NCBI GenBank assembly: GCA_020850575.1
Contig: JADZEJ010000001.1
Coordinates: forward strand, 1-64,000
Length of the DNA stretch: 64,000 nucleotides
DNA from: Candidatus Uhrbacteria bacterium
GTDB taxonomy: Bacteria; Patescibacteriota; Patescibacteriia; 2-12-FULL-60-25
Direction: 5' to 3'
The notes under the pieces are model-generated. The model was not told the origin of the DNA and did no database searches. It saw nothing but the letters and a program-made list of their open reading frames with translations. The translations under genes and the position numbers were made by a program. This document shows, one piece after another, positions 1 through 16,114 of the stretch. The stretch's first letter is position 1; each line of letters opens with the position of its first letter.

Positions 1-1181
1 ATGTCCACGCGGGCGGAAGATTCCGTACCGACAGTGAAGACATTACCGCGGACTGGGAATGAACCAGCAACCGTCGAGTTGCCTGAAACGACCACCGAAG
101 CGGCGTCAGTCAATTGGAAGGAGTGTTGGCCGCCAGTTGCCGTTGGGGAAGAGAAGTCGCCATAAATATAGACAGACTTGGTCATGCCAGCGTCAACCAT
201 CACATTGAGCGAGTTAAACTCGACAACGTTGGTCTGCGAGTTGATCGAGCGGCCGGTCGTGAGACGCAAACCGTCTTGGTCATACAAGTAGACATTTGAG
301 AAGTCGGAAGTTGAACCGATACCGATGCGCGTAAAGCGGAGACCTGTGACGGTCACGCCGTTCGAGCCAGCGGTCAAGTTAACTTTAACGAGCTTCACGG
401 AAGAAGCGTTCTTGGTCACCGTCATGCCGGCTGGCGTGTCGGAAGCCAAAGAAACGGTGAGGTTACCACCGACTGGAGTTGCCGTAGTGGAAACAGCGTC
501 AGCCAACCAAGCCTCGCGGCCAGTGACATCGGAGCCGTTACCATACACAACGGAAGTGGTGATTACATCAGCCATGTTGAGGCCGTTCGCAGCGAAAGCT
601 GCATCTGATGCAAGCTTGCGTTTGGCGCCGCCCTGAACCACATAAAGGGTTGGGTCGTTTTCGTACTTAATAACAGTGCCATCTGGGTGGACCATCGTCG
701 AAACGGATGAGCCAACGGTGTAATTGACAAAGAAGGCATCAGGTACGTCGATGACGCGTTGAGCCCAATTGTCACCAAAGAGGCCCTTCGCGACCGCTTC
801 GGATTCGATCCAGTGCAAGACGCCCCAGTTGGTGACGGCATACACCTTAGGATCAGTGGTGATCTTGATAAGTTTTGTACCAGCGCGTTCTGTGACGTTG
901 CCGCCAATCATAATCGCAGCCAATTCATCATCAGTAATGGTTTTTACTGAGTTGAAGTTTTGATACCAGGAGAAGAAGGTCTTCTCATTTGGGAACACAT
1001 AACGTTTACCATCAGTAGCGTAGTTATACACTGCTGGACCTGACGCCTTAATGAGGTCACCCGCCGAGAGTGTCGCAGCGGAAGCCACGCCTGGAAGGGC
1101 GAAGGTACCGGCGCCGACAGACCAGGCAATGGTCGTCAGGGAGACGAACGAAGAAAAAGCTTTCTTTAAGTTGTTAGCCAT
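1..1181 (-). CDS. S-layer-like secreted surface protein (3' end cut by window edge)
   Basis: The frame is open from the ATG at 1181 to base 1, giving 393 residues without a stop, so the C-terminus lies outside the window. Residues 1-36 form a signal peptide (MANNLKKAF start, then a hydrophobic run ending at GVASAA). Three related modules of about 45 residues follow, each with a V/L-Y-x-V/Y core and a later charged/aromatic segment (PAVYNYATDGKR, PKVYAVTNWGVLHW, PTLYVVQGGAKRK). After these comes a beta-rich, Thr/Val/Gly-rich region. Codons are strongly biased to GGC, ACC and GTC, as in a highly expressed gene. Known context: Patescibacteria often encode one abundant secreted protein with such repeats. 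Calling it S-layer-like is inference. Confidence 0.7.
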   Translation of the reverse strand, partial: MANNLKKAFSSFVSLTTIAWSVGAGTFALPGVASAATLSAGDLIKASGPAVYNYATDGKRYVFPNEKTFFSWYQNFNSVKTITDDELAAIMIGGNVTERAGTKLIKITTDPKVYAVTNWGVLHWIESEAVAKGLFGDNWAQRVIDVPDAFFVNYTVGSSVSTMVHPDGTVIKYENDPTLYVVQGGAKRKLASDAAFAANGLNMADVITTSVVYGNGSDVTGREAWLADAVSTTATPVGGNLTVSLASDTPAGMTVTKNASSVKLVKVNLTAGSNGVTVTGLRFTRIGIGSTSDFSNVYLYDQDGLRLTTGRSINSQTNVVEFNSLNVMVDAGMTKSVYIYGDFSSPTATGGQHSFQLTDAASVVVSGNSTVAGSFPVRGNVFTVGTESSARVD

Positions 1182-9904: not shown

Positions 9905-11347
9905 TCAGTTTAGCATGCGAGTCGTCTCCGTTGCATCACGATCGGAATTTGTAGTACGTTTAGTAAGAATAGGAATAGAAGCAAGCGTAATCCCAATTGG
10001 TAACCACATTTTTCCGGTCCAATAATCTGTGTCAAAAACTTGATAAAATAAAACACCACACGCACCGGCTACAAGTAACACGAAGGCTCGATTCGCTGGA
10101 CCACGAAGAATCTTTTTTTTACCCTGATGCACAAGCCAAAAAAAGTGCAGTACAACGGCGGCTAGCGCTGCCAAACCGATTAAACCGGCTTCAGCTGCCA
10201 CTTTTTGAATAAAACCATGAGAATCGAGAGGCGCACCGAATTCAGTGACAAATAAATTCGTTGAGCCGACGCGATCAACAAAACTTCCTGCACCGGCACC
10301 AAGCCATGGACTTGATAGAAATAGATCTTGTGCGATTTCAGCTAAAACCAATCGCGTACTATTTGAACTCTTGGCAGTTTGAGATGCGAAAGCGAAATAA
10401 GACATGCCAAATACAAGCGGAATTGCAAATACAGACACTGTGAAAATCTGCGACAAATGTTTTTTCATGATCTCGCGCCACTCCGTAAAAAAAAGAAATA
10501 CAATTTGCAGAATAAAGACCAGCCACGTTGAGCGTGAAAACGTGAGTAGACCAATAAGAAACATGAAAGCAGCCGCTAAATGCAAGATGCGACGATGTCG
10601 TTCTTCACGAACTAATTCAGCAAGCGCAAGTGCAAACGGCACTGTTACCACCATTAAATCTCCAAGGGAATTATGATTTTCTCCCAAGGCACTATATCCA
10701 AAAATCGGCATGGGTCTAGCGCGACCGATAAATCCCCCACCCGGCGGGAAGAACATCGCAACTAATCCATTGGCGGCGGCAAAAACTCCGACACAAACCA
10801 GTATCGCTAAGATATTCATCAAACGACTGCGTGACTTAATCAAGTTGACCGGTAAAGCAATGAATGCAAGATAATCGAATAAAATTGGTCGCATTGCATA
10901 CTTCGCGACAAGTACCGGATCCGGAAGCAAGCGAGACAATCCACTTGAGAGATGCGCAAGTGTCATGGCGAAATAGGATTCTGCTAAAGGTAAACGTGGA
11001 TGCCACTGTTGATCTCCACGCTTTGACCAGAGAAAGAATAACTTGAATGCCCAAGCGGCGAGCACGACAAAGCAGACGAATTCAGCCAAACTGATATCAA
11101 TCGCTCCGCCAAAAGCTCGTTTTCCAAACAATAATTCTCCGGTTGGAATAGAAATGTTCAACCCCAAAAATGGCGTCAATGCAACTGCTAATCCAAAGGA
11201 TGTATAAATATATTGATATGCAAAAAAAATAGCGACAAGTCCACCAAATAAAACAACGGGAACAAATGGGATACTCGCTGCCACAAAAATTGCTATCAGA
11301 GAAGCGCAAAGAAAGAGGCCCCATGGCAAAGATGATATACGATTCAT
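9905..11347 (-). CDS. O-antigen ligase/polymerase-like membrane protein
   Basis: 480 residues from ATG 11347, with about 10-12 membrane helices. The Wzy_C signature is present: LFLSSPWLGAGAGSF, a large loop with DSHGFIQKVAAEAGLIGLAA, then further helices. It would join or polymerise lipid-linked glycan units outside the membrane. The open frame extends to 11494, but the upstream part reads through the terminator of the neighbouring lipoprotein gene and has no membrane or family features. I therefore chose ATG 11347 (or 11356, MHRM). It is first in the five-gene minus-strand operon down to 3397. Confidence 0.8.
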   Translation of the reverse strand: MNRISSLPWGLFLCASLIAIFVAASIPFVPVVLFGGLVAIFFAYQYIYTSFGLAVALTPFLGLNISIPTGELLFGKRAFGGAIDISLAEFVCFVVLAAWAFKLFFLWSKRGDQQWHPRLPLAESYFAMTLAHLSSGLSRLLPDPVLVAKYAMRPILFDYLAFIALPVNLIKSRSRLMNILAILVCVGVFAAANGLVAMFFPPGGGFIGRARPMPIFGYSALGENHNSLGDLMVVTVPFALALAELVREERHRRILHLAAAFMFLIGLLTFSRSTWLVFILQIVFLFFTEWREIMKKHLSQIFTVSVFAIPLVFGMSYFAFASQTAKSSNSTRLVLAEIAQDLFLSSPWLGAGAGSFVDRVGSTNLFVTEFGAPLDSHGFIQKVAAEAGLIGLAALAAVVLHFFWLVHQGKKKILRGPANRAFVLLVAGACGVLFYQVFDTDYWTGKMWLPIGITLASIPILTKRTTNSDRDATETTRMLN

Positions 11348-11354
11348 CCTGTGC

Positions 11355-11360
11355 ATTATA
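11355..11360 (-). promoter_or_regulatory. -10 box seven bases before the ATG (possible leaderless start)
   Basis: TATAAT at 11355-11360 with exactly seven bases to ATG 11347. No -35 is visible because the lipoprotein terminator lies directly upstream. It is one of several such boxes in the window. Confidence 0.4.
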
Positions 11361-11370
11361 ACGCAGAAAC

Positions 11371-11413
11371 AAAAAATCCTCGGTATTTTAGCTCGTAAGC
11401 TAAAATACCGAGG
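11371..11413 (-). terminator. Intrinsic terminator of the first GC-rich lipoprotein gene
   Basis: A perfect 16-bp stem (CCTCGGTATTTTAGCT and its complement, loop of 4) at 11378-11413, followed on the minus strand by a T-rich run at 11371-11377. It lies 10 bases after the CDS stop. Confidence 0.85.
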
Positions 11414-11423
11414 AAGATGAGTA

Positions 11424-13142
11424 TCATGGAACTTGGAACTGCAAGGCATACGTGTACTGACCGTACGCATTGCCGACGTCCTGGGAGTTGTCATAGTAAG
11501 TCACGGCGACCAAGGTCGAACCCTGGTAGACGTAGAACTTCCCCATGTACTTCCCCGAAACCGGCTGTGCGAGACCACGAGAGCCTCCGCACAGACCGAC
11601 ACCGAAGTCGCCGTGCCAACCGGGCGCGACCGACGCCGTTCCAGAGCAAGCGGCACTGAAGAACTTGACGTTCCCGTTGACGATGTTGTCACCGGTCACG
11701 AAGTTCACTGGGGTACTGTAGAAGTTCCCCGTCGGCGTGAGGGTCGCGAGCAAGCCGTACGGCTGGGTCACTGTCGTGCCCCAGAGTTCTGGATTGCCCG
11801 ATTCGACCCAAGCCGGCGCACCGACTTGATCTTGCGGAGAGTACGTGGTCGGGGGGACCCAGACCACGGTCAACGACGTCAACTGCGGCGAACCGCTGCT
11901 GCCGGCCGAACCCGCTGAACCCGAGGAACCGGCGGTCGAGCCGGCGGAACCAGCCGTGCCAGCGGAACCGGCGCCGGAAGAACCGGCGCTACCCGAGGCA
12001 CCCGCTGCGCCGCCTGCGTCGTCATAGGTGCACCAGGGCTGGATGTCGCTGCAGACCTCGTCGTCTTTCAGCAGATATCCGTAGGGCTTGGTACCAACCC
12101 AGCAATCGGTGCAGTAGCGCAAGATTGGCTTTGAGGTGTTCGCCTCGTAGGCAATACACACCTCGTTCTGCGTCCAGCAAGGATTGCCGGACTTGCACTC
12201 GATAGTCGTGCCTTGCACTGGGCACATCGGAGCGGCGCCACCAGAACCACCGAAACCGCCCGTTCCGACCGAGCCCGAGCTTCCGCCCGTGCCAGCCGAA
12301 CCCGAGGTGCCCGCCGTACCCGCGCCGCTGCTCCCCGAGGAACCGGCGGTCGAACCGGCGGAGCCAGCCGTACCAGCGGAACCAGCGGTACCGGCACCGG
12401 AAGAACCGGCACTCCCTGAGGAACCCGCCGCACCGCCCGCACCCGCGCTTCCGCAAGCCGAGAGTGCATCAGGCGTCCAAATGCCATTGTCGCAGCGCGT
12501 ATCGTTGCAATGGGCACACTGCCCCCACTGCGCACAAGACGTGCCAACGGTGACACCGGAGCAAGGGTCGGAACCCCCGCCGCCAGCCGAACCCGCAGAA
12601 CCGGAAGAACCGGCGGTCGAACCGGCGGAGCCAGCCGTACCAGCGGTACCGGCGCCGGAAGAACCGGCACTGCCCGAGGCACCCGCCGCACCGCCCGCAC
12701 CCGAGGTGTCGGGAACGAGAGTGTGGGTGGGATCGTCGCACATGAGTTGAGCCCCGGTCTTGGGGTTCACACAATGTGCAAGCTGAGGCGTGTCTTGCAC
12801 GTCGCAGTAAGCCGAGACGCCGAAGGCGTCGACCTGATCGTAGCAACCCGGGGTCTGAAAAGACGCCGGGAAGCCGTTGACCGGCTTGGTGAAATCGCAG
12901 ACGAGAACCGGCGACCCATTACCCACACCACTAAAGCAGTAGCTGGGGATGGGATTGCCGTCCACATCCTTGGACGCAATGTTGCACGGATTGTTGAGCG
13001 CGCACTGATTCAACTTCTCGCTGACCGTACCGGTCTCGATGCCCGACTTGGGTTGCTCATCCTTGGAAGATGCGCAACCGACGAAGGTGCACAAGGAGAC
13101 GACGGAAACGAGACTCATGATGAATAGAGACGAACTGGTCAT
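11424..13142 (-). CDS. GC-rich multi-module lipoprotein with Gly/Ser/Ala repeat linkers
   Basis: 572 residues from ATG 13142, chosen because GGAGG lies 5 bases upstream; in-frame ATG 13172 has none. Signal peptide with lipobox CTFVGC, lipid cysteine at about 23. Cys-rich modules (CALNNPCNIASKD; CAQWGQCAHCNDTRCDNG; GNPCWTQNEVC) are separated by three linkers built from GSAGSSGAGTAG-type triplets. The C-terminal module is a beta domain of about 150 residues with two cysteines. Composition and codons are much GC-richer than the flanking genes. Such linkers with Cys-rich modules are typical of Myxococcota surface lipoproteins, so transfer is likely (inference). It is paralogous to the next gene: CDNGIWTP here, CNGVWTP there. 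Confidence 0.75.
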   Translation of the reverse strand: MTSSSLFIMSLVSVVSLCTFVGCASSKDEQPKSGIETGTVSEKLNQCALNNPCNIASKDVDGNPIPSYCFSGVGNGSPVLVCDFTKPVNGFPASFQTPGCYDQVDAFGVSAYCDVQDTPQLAHCVNPKTGAQLMCDDPTHTLVPDTSGAGGAAGASGSAGSSGAGTAGTAGSAGSTAGSSGSAGSAGGGGSDPCSGVTVGTSCAQWGQCAHCNDTRCDNGIWTPDALSACGSAGAGGAAGSSGSAGSSGAGTAGSAGTAGSAGSTAGSSGSSGAGTAGTSGSAGTGGSSGSVGTGGFGGSGGAAPMCPVQGTTIECKSGNPCWTQNEVCIAYEANTSKPILRYCTDCWVGTKPYGYLLKDDEVCSDIQPWCTYDDAGGAAGASGSAGSSGAGSAGTAGSAGSTAGSSGSAGSAGSSGSPQLTSLTVVWVPPTTYSPQDQVGAPAWVESGNPELWGTTVTQPYGLLATLTPTGNFYSTPVNFVTGDNIVNGNVKFFSAACSGTASVAPGWHGDFGVGLCGGSRGLAQPVSGKYMGKFYVYQGSTLVAVTYYDNSQDVGNAYGQYTYALQFQVP

Positions 13143-13246
13143 GTGATCCTCCATGAAACGTAGTGAAGACACAAGAAATGTTTTTTTCCTGTGTCAGTTT
13201 GGAACGAACATTCGCCGCCCATTACTTGAGCTAATGACGATGTTTG

Positions 13247-13275
13247 AACCTACAGGAAAATAAAATTTTTGTCAA
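13247..13275 (-). promoter_or_regulatory. Promoter of the first GC-rich lipoprotein gene
   Basis: TTGACA at 13270-13275, a 17-base spacer, TAGGTT at 13247-13252. It predicts a 5' leader of roughly 100 bases ending in GGAGG. The promoter segment is AT-rich, unlike the gene it drives. Confidence 0.65.
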
Positions 13276-13295
13276 GGCATTAGCTTGGTTACGTA

Positions 13296-13337
13296 TAAAA
13301 AAAAGCCGACCGATCTCACTTTCGTGAAACCGGCCGG
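13296..13337 (-). terminator. Intrinsic terminator of the second GC-rich lipoprotein gene
   Basis: The arms GTGAAACCGGCCGG (13324-13337) and GCCGACCGATCTCAC (13305-13319) pair with a few G-U or mismatched positions. A run of nine T residues follows on the minus strand at 13296-13304. A smaller CTAGCG/CGCTAG hairpin lies just after the stop. Confidence 0.8.
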
Positions 13338-13361
13338 GAGGGAATCTAGCGAAGCGCTAGA

Positions 13362-14900
13362 TCAGTTGTAGGTTGCGAACCAGTGGCAGTCCTGGTTCAG
13401 CGAGAGAGCCGCCGTGGTGGCGACCGTGTTTGTCTCGGCATTGAACACCGAGACCGTGGAAACGTTTGAGATGCAGATACCACCCTGCAAACCCGCCGAA
13501 CTGTTCTTGCCGTTCACGCTGGGGGTCCAGGTGACGTAGAACGTCTTCGGCTTCGTCGAGAGGAGAACGGTGTCGTAGACGCCGTTCGAGACCTCGGTCA
13601 TCGCGATGCCGCCGTCGACCCAGTTGAGATCGTCGTAGAAGCGCGCGGTCACGCCGTGGGGCATGCCGGTCATCCTAACGTAGACCTGACCGAGATCACT
13701 GACGCTGGGATCGTAACTCCCATCGCAGTTGAGGTCGTCGGTGTCGTTGGCGGACTCGAGTGCGCCGGGGTAAGTTGCCTGTCCCTTGCCAATGCTCTGA
13801 TCACAGTCCCCTTGCGCGCCGGTTTTGCCGTCGCAGTCAGGATCCGCATCCGAGCCGCAGCTCTCGAGCATGAAGCGGAGGTGACAACCGCCGCCTTCGC
13901 TGATCGCGATCGGCGCCTTGAGCGCACGGACGATGCCGTCCGAGCCCTTGTAGGTAGCCCACATCGGCTCCGTTGCGGCACTGTTATTGCAGAGCTGCGA
14001 AGCACCGGTGTCGACGCTGCCGTTCAGCTGGACATAGGCACCCCAGTGGGCACCGACCTTCCAGGTGAACTTAGCGTCGGTCGCAGTGAAGTTGGGATCT
14101 GTTCCCCACACGATGCTGCCGTTGGACTCGAAGGCGTACAGCTTGAGGCTGTGCACACCCGACTCCTTGAGCGAGATGGTGAGCGAAAACTCGCCCAGCT
14201 CACCGACGACGGGACCAACGTTGGATCCAGCCGCACCCGCCGTACCAGCCGTGCCCGCACTCCCTGAGGAGCCTGAAGCACCAGCCGAACCGGCGTTGCC
14301 CGCGTTGCCGTTTGAGCCCGTCGGCGTCCAGACGCCGTTGCAGATCAAGGACCCGCAGACGACGCCGGATTGTGCGACTGCGCACCAGGCACCCGCCTGA
14401 GACGTCGAACAGACGTCGTCACTAGTCGAGCCAGCGCTGTTCGCCTTACCAGCCGTGCCTGCATTCCCGAAGGAATCCGAGGCACCAGCCGAACCAGCGC
14501 TGTTCGCCTTACCAGCCGTGCCTGCATTCCCGAAGGAATCCGAGGCACCAGCCGAACCGGCGGTTGAGGTCGAGCCCGACGAACCGGTTGCAGACGAACC
14601 AGAGCTTCCGCCCATGCCATCGTTCTTCGAGATACACCTGCCGAACCCACCCTGGTCGACAACGCAGATCTCGTTCGGATCGCAGGCGATTTTGCTGCAG
14701 ATCGAGACAGCCTGGTCGGCGCCAGCCGCGCCCGTACCGCTCATGCCGCCGGTGTTTGTGTTTTTACCGGAGCTGCCCGCCATCCCCGTTGGGTTTACCA
14801 CTTCGTCGGTATTGCCATCCGACGGATCCCCGCAGCCCACAAGGGCAACGAGAAAGACGAACACGAAGAAGACCAACTTCATCTTGTTGTAAATGTACAT
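13362..14900 (-). CDS. GC-rich lipoprotein with MopE-like metal-binding motif and tandem repeats
   Basis: 512 residues. The start is ATG 14900, with AGGAGG 6 bases upstream. Signal peptide with lipobox VALVGC, lipid cysteine at about 23. Residues 30-230 are Gly/Ser/Ala linkers with a Cys-rich module (CSKIACDPNEICVVDQGGFGRC), an exact 21-residue tandem duplication and a CNGVWTP module shared with the neighbour. Residues about 355-400 read DPDCDGKTGAQGDCD and then YPGALESANDTDDLNCDG, matching the putative metal-binding MopE-type motif common in Myxococcota. Composition is GC-rich like its neighbour. It has its own promoter and terminator. Likely a cell-surface protein; its ligand is unknown. 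Confidence 0.75.
   Translation of the reverse strand: MYIYNKMKLVFFVFVFLVALVGCGDPSDGNTDEVVNPTGMAGSSGKNTNTGGMSGTGAAGADQAVSICSKIACDPNEICVVDQGGFGRCISKNDGMGGSSGSSATGSSGSTSTAGSAGASDSFGNAGTAGKANSAGSAGASDSFGNAGTAGKANSAGSTSDDVCSTSQAGAWCAVAQSGVVCGSLICNGVWTPTGSNGNAGNAGSAGASGSSGSAGTAGTAGAAGSNVGPVVGELGEFSLTISLKESGVHSLKLYAFESNGSIVWGTDPNFTATDAKFTWKVGAHWGAYVQLNGSVDTGASQLCNNSAATEPMWATYKGSDGIVRALKAPIAISEGGGCHLRFMLESCGSDADPDCDGKTGAQGDCDQSIGKGQATYPGALESANDTDDLNCDGSYDPSVSDLGQVYVRMTGMPHGVTARFYDDLNWVDGGIAMTEVSNGVYDTVLLSTKPKTFYVTWTPSVNGKNSSAGLQGGICISNVSTVSVFNAETNTVATTAALSLNQDCHWFATYN
14431..14556. repeat. 63-bp perfect tandem repeat inside the second lipoprotein gene
   Basis: Two identical 63-base units (14431-14493 and 14494-14556), each encoding 21 residues containing SDSFGNAGTAGKANSAG. 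Exact identity at DNA level points to a recent duplication and a possible site of length variation. Confidence 0.9.
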
Positions 14901-14976: not shown

Positions 14977-15005
14977 AAGATAGCACAAAAAAGCCTTTTT
15001 GTCAA
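14977..15005 (-). promoter_or_regulatory. Promoter of the second GC-rich lipoprotein gene
   Basis: TTGACA at 15000-15005, a 17-base spacer, TATCTT at 14977-14982. It leads to a leader of about 70 bases ending in AGGAGG. The architecture matches the promoter of the sister gene. Confidence 0.7.
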
Positions 15006-15304: not shown

Positions 15305-15354
15305 AGCCGCCCACCTGCCACTATGTGCCAGGATACTGGGCGGCTATTTATTTT
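15305..15354 (+). terminator. Hairpin ending the short plus-strand transcript
   Basis: AGCCGCCCA at 15305-15313 pairs with TGGGCGGCT at 15337-15345, followed on the plus strand by ATTTATTTT. The minus-strand side has no T run, so it serves the plus-strand unit. The stop of the convergent TrmB-like gene overlaps its distal arm. Confidence 0.6.
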
Positions 15355-16114
15355 GTGATTTAAAATCCTCTCCTGACATCCAGGCGGCTTCAAACAGCGA
15401 ACGAAACAAAGCCACTAGCATGTGACTTTCGAGTATCAATCCCATTGGCTCGTCTTTTGTAATAAAAGCTGCAACAGTGTTTCCAAAGATATCAAGCTCG
15501 CCAGAAAACGGTGATCGTTCAAATGGAATTTGACGTATTTTCCATGAAGTAAAATCTGTTGATGGAATTTGCATTCCCGGTTTGATTGCAAGTATCAATC
15601 GACCGTGAAGTCGGCGAGCCATACGTTGTCGTTCGCGTTCTTCGATTTGCGCAACCTCATACAACCCTTCATCTATGCAAGTAAAGCTTAAATACTCTTC
15701 ATCTGGCGAATTTTCCATCAAAACTGATCTTGCGGCTGAAATACCTTTCATGCCCTCAAAATACCGAACTCGTGGCTTGTGTTCTATTGCATGAAATAAT
15801 GCCATAAAATCTGGCATCACCTCACCAAGTTTTTGTCTTCTTTTTTCGATTTCTTGTAATTCTTTCTCTAGTTGCTCATGTAAACGATGTGGTGATTCCG
15901 GAATAAAGACCGTGCGACTTTCTTGTTCCGCCTCGGAAACAAGCCCGCGTTGTTTCAACGTTTGGAATAAAGCATAAGCTGTTGAACGATTAATACCCGC
16001 TTTTTCTGCAACCGCCTGTACGCCCGATGGACCAAGTTCGAGTAAAGCGAGATAGACACCCGCCTCCTTCTCAGAGAGACCTAATTCCAGAAGATGGCGG
16101 ACTGATTCGTGCAT
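15344..16114 (-). CDS. TrmB-type transcriptional regulator
   Basis: 256 residues. Residues 1-75 are a winged helix: LLELGLSEKEAGVYLALLEL, GVQAVAEKAGINRSTAYALF, then the wing LKQRGLVSEAEQESRTVFIP. A short coiled coil follows at 80-110 (EQLEKELQEIEKRRQKLGEV). The remaining effector-like domain contains a phospholipase-D-like YLSFTCIDEGLYEVA segment. TrmB proteins bind DNA in response to sugars. The gene sits 4 bases after a GT4 gene in the same direction, so it may sense a glycan precursor and control surface-sugar genes; that link is inference. Confidence 0.82.
   Translation of the reverse strand: MHESVRHLLELGLSEKEAGVYLALLELGPSGVQAVAEKAGINRSTAYALFQTLKQRGLVSEAEQESRTVFIPESPHRLHEQLEKELQEIEKRRQKLGEVMPDFMALFHAIEHKPRVRYFEGMKGISAARSVLMENSPDEEYLSFTCIDEGLYEVAQIEERERQRMARRLHGRLILAIKPGMQIPSTDFTSWKIRQIPFERSPFSGELDIFGNTVAAFITKDEPMGLILESHMLVALFRSLFEAAWMSGEDFKSQNK

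What the first reader, a model, noticed from the sequence alone, without database searches (positions are those of the whole stretch)
11424..14900. GC-rich Myxococcota-like lipoprotein pair embedded in a Patescibacteria-type genome
Seen: two adjacent lipoprotein genes, much GC-richer than both flanks, with Gly/Ser/Ala triplet linkers, Cys-rich modules and (second gene) a MopE-type DPDCDG...GDCD...DLNCDG motif. Known: such modular lipoproteins are characteristic of Myxococcota. Inferred: horizontal transfer, perhaps from a host or prey, with AT-rich promoters acquired or kept upstream. A surface protein copied from a bacterial partner would be notable in an episymbiont lineage.
Basis: partly seen in the sequence, partly recalled or inferred. 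Interest (0 to 1): 0.75.

Follow-up and report, generated by a model that had tools for sequence, protein, structure and literature searches.

The report
Inherited surface-lipoprotein locus in a Patescibacteria family
Two odd, GC-rich surface-protein genes in a tiny presumed parasitic bacterium were not recently stolen from another bacterium: they sit at a chromosomal spot that most of its relatives with a readable copy of it fill with fast-changing, apparently strongly expressed surface proteins, probably used to stick to other cells.

Summary
Two adjacent minus-strand lipoprotein genes (GC 0.63 and 0.62, in a 0.41-GC genome) have lipoboxes, Gly/Ser/Ala triplet linkers and Cys modules; the second carries a degenerate MopE-like motif. 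Fourfold-site GC outside the linkers is 0.71 and 0.80, against 0.365 (max 0.48) in 39 window genes.

Recent transfer and misassembly are not supported. The slot (between a TrmB-type regulator and an O-antigen ligase) recurs in related Patescibacteria genomes. It usually holds one or two Cys-rich lipoproteins that are GC-richer than their flanks (21 of 22). The LIPO2 beta-domain occurs once in 13 of 41 family genomes, always in this slot. Its tree largely follows the flanking genes (AU p=0.03 against identity). It was not found in 269 genomes of a Deltaproteobacteria (probably Myxococcota) phylum. LIPO1's C-terminal domain has no relative found.

The lineage does use Myxococcota-type modules (MopE, TSP3, Cys repeats). 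A second conserved slot (Wzz to HolB) holds similar genes. Slot genes share a near-consensus promoter, TTGACA-N14-TGnTAnnnT: 34 in 31 slots, none in adjoining flanks.

Best reading: an inherited, strongly transcribed, fast-diversifying surface-adhesin locus. Function is inferred. Why high GC persists is unexplained.

The parts
13362..14900 (-). LIPO2 coding sequence, 512 aa: signal peptide and lipobox LVGC, Cys modules, Gly triplet linkers, beta-rich C-terminal region
13365..14201 (-). LIPO2 C-terminal region (about 279 aa) shared by positional orthologues in 12 other genomes of the family
   Evidence: leave-one-out HMM 82.0 bits, best of 200 shuffles 4.4; A5 search 13/41 genomes, all in this slot
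13713..13847 (-). Degenerate MopE-like (DxDxDG...DC...E...D..C) motif of LIPO2
   Evidence: alignment A4 invariant columns; not reported for this protein by Pfam at E<=1
11424..13142 (-). LIPO1 coding sequence with inferred start (ORF as listed reaches 13172): signal peptide and lipobox FVGC, Cys modules, three triplet linkers
11427..11891 (-). LIPO1 C-terminal domain, 155 aa, no relative found
11892..12707 (-). LIPO1 region with the three Gly/Ser/Ala/Thr triplet linkers and Cys modules; one module is shared with the lipoprotein at G000:C2:78266
   Evidence: linker map; (56% identity, E 4.7e-25)
14977..15005 (-). LIPO2 promoter: TTGACA-N17-TATCTT with extended -10 TG
   Evidence: motif class 34 in slots, 0 outside
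13247..13275 (-). LIPO1 promoter: TTGACAAAAA...TAGGTT, spacer 17
13306..13337 (-). Intrinsic-terminator-like hairpin after LIPO2, 14 pairs then T run
   Evidence: class not above shuffles overall; strong individual stem
11377..11414 (-). Intrinsic-terminator-like hairpin after LIPO1, 17 pairs then T run
15344..16114 (-). TrmB-type regulator gene, upstream border of the slot
   Evidence: Pfam TrmB E 1.6e-15; found in 35 of 41 family genomes
9905..11356 (-). O-antigen ligase (Wzy_C) gene, downstream border of the slot; start inferred inside the longer listed ORF
   Evidence: Pfam Wzy_C E 8e-13; syntenic in relatives

Best explanation
The two genes occupy a conserved surface-protein slot of one Patescibacteria family, inherited with the chromosome and not recently transferred. 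Each gene is its own transcription unit with a near-consensus sigma-70 promoter and a terminator-like hairpin. The product is secreted, given a lipid anchor at its N-terminal cysteine and tethered to the outside of the membrane; flexible Gly-rich linkers and disulfide-rich modules present a C-terminal beta-rich head (Ca-binding-type MopE-like motif in LIPO2). The head most likely binds another cell or its polymers, as an adhesin of a cell-attached lifestyle. Shown: position, inheritance of LIPO2, promoter class, presence of lipoprotein maturation genes. Inferred: surface exposure, high expression, adhesion.
For: Same slot in related genomes with 1-2 long Cys-rich lipobox proteins. LIPO2 domain: 82.0 bits against a model built without it, best of 200 shuffles 4.4; single copy in 13/41 family genomes, all in the slot. 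LIPO2 tree recovers G000 with genus g14 and G008 (support 97) and the g14 topology of the flanking-gene tree; RF distance 4. Only MopE-motif-sized hits in 380 genomes of its own phylum apart from family members. Promoter TTGACA-N14-TGnTAnnnT: 34 in slots, 0 in flanks, p=2.3e-16. Lgt and LspA are encoded (Pfam E 1.1e-47 and 4.3e-22). Second heads of the slot fall into at least three unrelated types while scaffold and linkers persist. Surface proteins predicted as adhesins are needed by cultivated Patescibacteria (PMC11665869).
Against: The exact flanking-gene topology is rejected for LIPO2 at AU p=0.031, so some exchange inside the family is possible. The LIPO1 head is an orphan. Codon usage remains foreign to the AT-rich genome, which simple vertical descent does not explain. 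No structure was obtained (pLDDT 35). No expression or binding data exist. The slot is empty in G016 and not intact in several others.
Confidence: 0.66

Rival explanations
1. Recent horizontal transfer of both genes from a Myxococcota host or prey.
For: GC and codon usage far from the genome; Myxococcota-type modules in slot proteins of neighbouring genera; LIPO1 head without relatives in the family.
Against: LIPO2 has positional orthologues in 12 other family genomes and none in 269 genomes of the UBA796 phylum (with the positive control); the same GC excess occurs at this slot in almost all relatives.
Confidence: 0.08
2. Ancient acquisition of Myxococcota-type modules by the family ancestor, followed by vertical descent, duplication and module shuffling between the two slots.
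For: MopE in 14/37, TSP3 in 4/37 slot proteins, MtsC-like score E 8e-91, myxo_disulf_rpt; modules shared between LIPO1 and the gene at C2:78266 (56% identity) and between LIPO2 and genes at C2:76.4 kb; such modules also occur in other classes of the phylum.
Against: MopE and TSP3 are short, widespread Ca-binding repeats also seen in Bacteroidota and others, so convergence or another donor is possible; no donor was identified.
Confidence: 0.35
3. The slot is a hotspot that is repeatedly refilled by exchange within the family or from a GC-rich gene pool, which would keep the genes GC-rich.
For: Unrelated head domains at the same place; AU p=0.031 against the flanking topology; most reported gene transfer into Patescibacteria is from Patescibacteria (PMC12455944).
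Against: LIPO2 is single-copy, always in the slot, and its tree mostly follows the flanks; slot GC3 partly tracks flank GC3 (r=0.53).
Confidence: 0.25
4. Assembly chimera placing myxobacterial DNA in a Patescibacteria bin.
For: Sharp GC steps at 11.3 and 15.0 kb.
Against: Same gene order with GC-rich lipoproteins in many independently assembled genomes; native-style AT-rich promoters; a second such cluster inside another contig.
Confidence: 0.01

Closest known systems
Modular Cys-rich lipoproteins of Myxococcota (MopE motif, myxo_disulf_rpt, MtsC/TSP3 type)
   Same: Lipobox, Gly/Ser/Ala triplet linkers, disulfide-rich modules, DxDxDG Ca-binding-type motifs; some slot proteins of neighbouring genera score with these models
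   Different: The LIPO2 head is family-restricted in the searches made; genes lie in fixed slots of a roughly 1 Mb Patescibacteria genome under a shared promoter type
MopE / PF11617 metal-binding motif proteins
   Same: LIPO2 has the spacing and acidic pattern in a region aligned with PF11617-positive orthologues
   Different: The window copy is degenerate and not reported by Pfam at E<=1
Collagen-like adhesins (SclA/SclB/Lcl)
   Same: G-X-Y-like triplets and surface presentation; weak model hits
   Different: Below curated cut-offs (21.4 of 27.2 bits; 17.9 of 400 bits), lipid anchor and no LPXTG, almost no proline in the triplets
Adhesin-like and highly expressed secreted proteins of cultivated or enriched Patescibacteria (PMC11665869, PMC10936435)
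   Same: Secreted or surface proteins of a lineage expected to live attached to other cells
   Different: Those described carry peptidoglycan-binding, Ig-like or PKD domains; Cys-rich MopE/TSP3 lipoprotein slots were not found described in the papers searched

Membership tests
Bacterial lipoprotein | Hydrophobic signal peptide followed by a lipobox cysteine | tested here: met
   LVGC in LIPO2, FVGC in LIPO1; the lipobox Cys column is conserved in at least 90% of 37 slot proteins
Bacterial lipoprotein | Lgt and LspA encoded in the genome | tested here: met
   C3:111544-112287 LGT E 1.1e-47; C4:24532-25038 Peptidase_A8 E 4.3e-22
Bacterial lipoprotein | Lipid-modified and surface-exposed in cells | not testable with these tools
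   needs proteomics or labelling
PF11617 Cu-binding_MopE | Pfam gathering score reached | tested here: not met
   LIPO2 not reported at E<=1; 14 of 37 slot proteins are reported
Collagen-like PF01391 | Pfam gathering score reached | tested here: not met
   21.4 and 10.2 bits, cut-off 27.2
Recent transfer from Myxococcota | Closest full-length homologue in Myxococcota, absent from sister lineages | tested here: not met
   LIPO2: 13/41 family genomes, 0/269 genomes of the UBA796 phylum; that this phylum is Myxococcota rests on memory
Recent transfer from Myxococcota | The same for LIPO1 | tested here: inconclusive
   Head domain orphan in family and plasmids; the Myxococcota search failed twice
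Adhesin of an attached lifestyle | Binds another cell or surface | not testable with these tools
   inferred from architecture only

The most novel reading that the evidence does not exclude
The family keeps two dedicated chromosomal slots for Cys-rich surface proteins under one near-consensus extended -10 promoter type, with interchangeable head domains. The same promoter type also drives the GC-rich target of a diversity-generating retroelement in this genome. Together these would form a promoter-defined surface regulon for recognising partners, in which high GC is actively kept against an AT-biased genome.
Probability: 0.3. Interest if true: 0.8.

Novelty: new variant of a known kind. Interest (0 to 1): 0.6.

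Why it matters
How small, host-dependent bacteria outside Saccharibacteria attach to partners is largely unknown. Two positionally fixed, strongly promoted and fast-diversifying surface slots give concrete candidate attachment genes across about 20 genera. The promoter motif offers a sequence handle for finding the rest of the surface set. The persistent GC excess of vertically inherited genes is also a warning: base composition alone would wrongly call them recent imports.

Tried and rejected
A chimeric assembly and a recent transfer were tested and rejected for LIPO2. Linker composition as the cause of high GC was rejected: non-linker codons are GC-richer than linker codons. Codon selection for high expression does not fit, since ribosomal protein genes of this genome have GC3 of about 0.35-0.45. 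AlphaFold models of both heads were useless (mean pLDDT 35.7 and 34.6), so no fold search was run. The first genome-contig query had no conserved stretch. My first motif searches for Lgt/LspA missed both genes; E. coli proteins then found them. ARAGORN's tRNA-Arg at 12601-12697 is a false call inside a linker (not in Rfam). E. coli BamA found nothing convincing (E 0.65), a weak test for an outer membrane. Literature searches returned no paper describing these slots.

Full report
What is there. The window holds two adjacent minus-strand genes, LIPO1 (11424-13172 as an ORF; the start is probably the ATG at 13142, preceded by GGAGG) and LIPO2 (13362-14900). Both begin with a signal peptide and lipobox and carry Cys modules and Gly/Ser/Ala/Thr triplet linkers. 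LIPO2 ends in a beta-rich region with a degenerate MopE-like motif. The GC peak (0.673 per kb) stands about seven standard deviations above the genome mean of 0.413. The excess is in codon choice and not only in the linkers: fourfold-site GC outside the linkers is 0.71 and 0.80, against 0.365 +/- 0.037 in 39 other window genes.

The slot. The pair lies between a TrmB-type regulator (15344-16114) and an O-antigen ligase (9905 to about 11356). TrmB relatives were found in 35 of 41 family genomes, and 28 loci were read. In most loci where the region is intact, the space between TrmB and the ligase holds one or two long proteins with a lipobox and 15-70 cysteines. In 21 of 22 lipobox-positive cases their GC3 exceeds that of the flanking genes, by 0.19 on average (r = 0.53 with flank GC3). 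The space is empty in G016 and not intact in several others. One family member, G031, is in GenBank as 'Patescibacteria group bacterium isolate C14-29', which fixes the phylum of the window.

LIPO2 is inherited. Thirteen slot proteins align along the whole LIPO2 architecture. A model of the C-terminal region built without the window protein scores it at 82.0 bits; the best of 200 shuffles scores 4.4. The part of this region without the MopE motif (alignment A5) finds 13 of 41 family genomes, one hit each, and every hit lies in the slot. In 380 genomes drawn from the phylum, only members of the family match beyond the short MopE stretch. In 269 genomes of the phylum of 'Deltaproteobacteria bacterium UBA796' the same model finds nothing at E<=0.01, and the full model finds only MopE-sized pieces. 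I believe UBA796 belongs to Myxococcota, from memory of GTDB; NCBI lists it only as an unclassified deltaproteobacterium. The LIPO2 tree groups the window genome with genus g14 and G008 (support 97), as the flanking genes do, with an RF distance of 4. The AU test rejects the exact flanking topology at p = 0.031, so it is mostly but not provably strictly vertical.

LIPO1 differs. Its 155-residue C-terminal head shows no similarity above shuffles to the second slot genes of relatives, which themselves fall into at least three unrelated types. One Cys module is 56% identical to a lipoprotein in the second cluster of the same genome, so modules are shared or shuffled inside this genome.

A second slot. 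A GC-rich cluster at C2:74605-79438 of the same genome lies between a Wzz-like gene and HolB/RRF/GlyRS. That place is also conserved in the family. It usually holds a secreted protein that looks like a small beta-barrel (my reading of the sequence, not tested) and one or two Cys-rich lipoproteins. Further relatives in this genome are at C2:206795-208726 and C7:65953-66717.

Module content. Among 37 slot proteins, Pfam reports the MopE motif in 14 and TSP3 repeats in 4. NCBIfam reports MtsC-like in 4, and myxo_disulf_rpt and MXAN_6577-like in one each.

Promoters. LIPO2 has TTGACA-N17-TATCTT with an extended -10 TG, and LIPO1 has TTGACA-N17-TAGGTT. Other GC-rich surface genes of the genome share TTGACAAAAA. 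The motif was noticed in this genome and then tested on the other genomes: TTGACA-N14-TGnTAnnnT occurs 34 times in 31 slots and not once in the adjoining flanks (slots are 35% of that sequence, p = 2.3e-16). TTGACAAAA occurs 34 times in slots and 5 outside, while 200 permuted 9-mers average 0.6 in slots (max 11, for a 9-mer overlapping the motif). Over 95% of the window's own genome the 9-mer is less exclusive: by my count 12 of 36 occurrences precede GC-rich island genes, and several others precede other secreted proteins. I read this as a strong sigma-70 promoter used for the surface set.

How it most likely works. Lgt and LspA are encoded, so the proteins can be lipid-anchored. The linkers and disulfide modules would hold a variable head away from the membrane. 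Conserved place, strong promoters, fast sequence change and head replacement fit an adhesin that must keep up with partner cells. This step is inference. Cultivated Patescibacteria are known to need surface proteins predicted as adhesins (PMC11665869), and enriched ones express secreted proteins of unknown function highly (PMC10936435).

What remains strange. Vertically inherited genes should drift towards the genome's composition. Here GC3 stays at about 0.6-0.88 in genomes whose flanks range from 0.34 to 0.77. Neither linker composition nor codon selection in highly expressed genes accounts for it. Repeated exchange within the family, GC-biased gene conversion or selection on the mRNA are possible and untested.

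Noticed in passing
G000:C2:258259-266212 (locus L095), outside the window: Tyrosine integrase, reverse transcriptase (RVT_1 E 1.2e-24) and a template/variable repeat pair of about 135 bases, 21 of 23 mismatches at T of the template copy as read on + (A on the other strand): a diversity-generating retroelement. Its target gene (GC3 0.90) has the same TTGACA...TGCTATCTT promoter as the slot genes.
   Followed up: partly
G000:C2:74605-79438 (locus L015): Second conserved slot; its first gene and homologues in relatives look like secreted proteins with a C-terminal beta-barrel, odd for a phylum thought to lack an outer membrane; E. coli BamA found no convincing match.
   Followed up: partly
G000:C2:206795-208726 (locus L092): Lipoprotein with triplet linkers and W-G-D-W repeat units resembling a beta-propeller, GC-rich, same promoter.
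   Followed up: no
G000:C1:65155-66189 (locus L077), just past the window: GC-rich (0.55) radical-SAM-like gene followed by kinase- and Nudix-like sequence in an otherwise AT-rich stretch.
   Followed up: no
window 3-1181 (-): Secreted protein cut by the contig end, GC 0.53, resembling surface-layer-type proteins of Patescibacteria.
   Followed up: no
window 12601-12697 (-): ARAGORN calls a tRNA-Arg inside the LIPO1 linker; Rfam does not support it, so a false positive.
   Followed up: yes
L018 and L020 (G031): Tandem paralogous lipoproteins (about 510-535 aa) with C-terminal triplet tails in a relative, showing local expansion.
   Followed up: no
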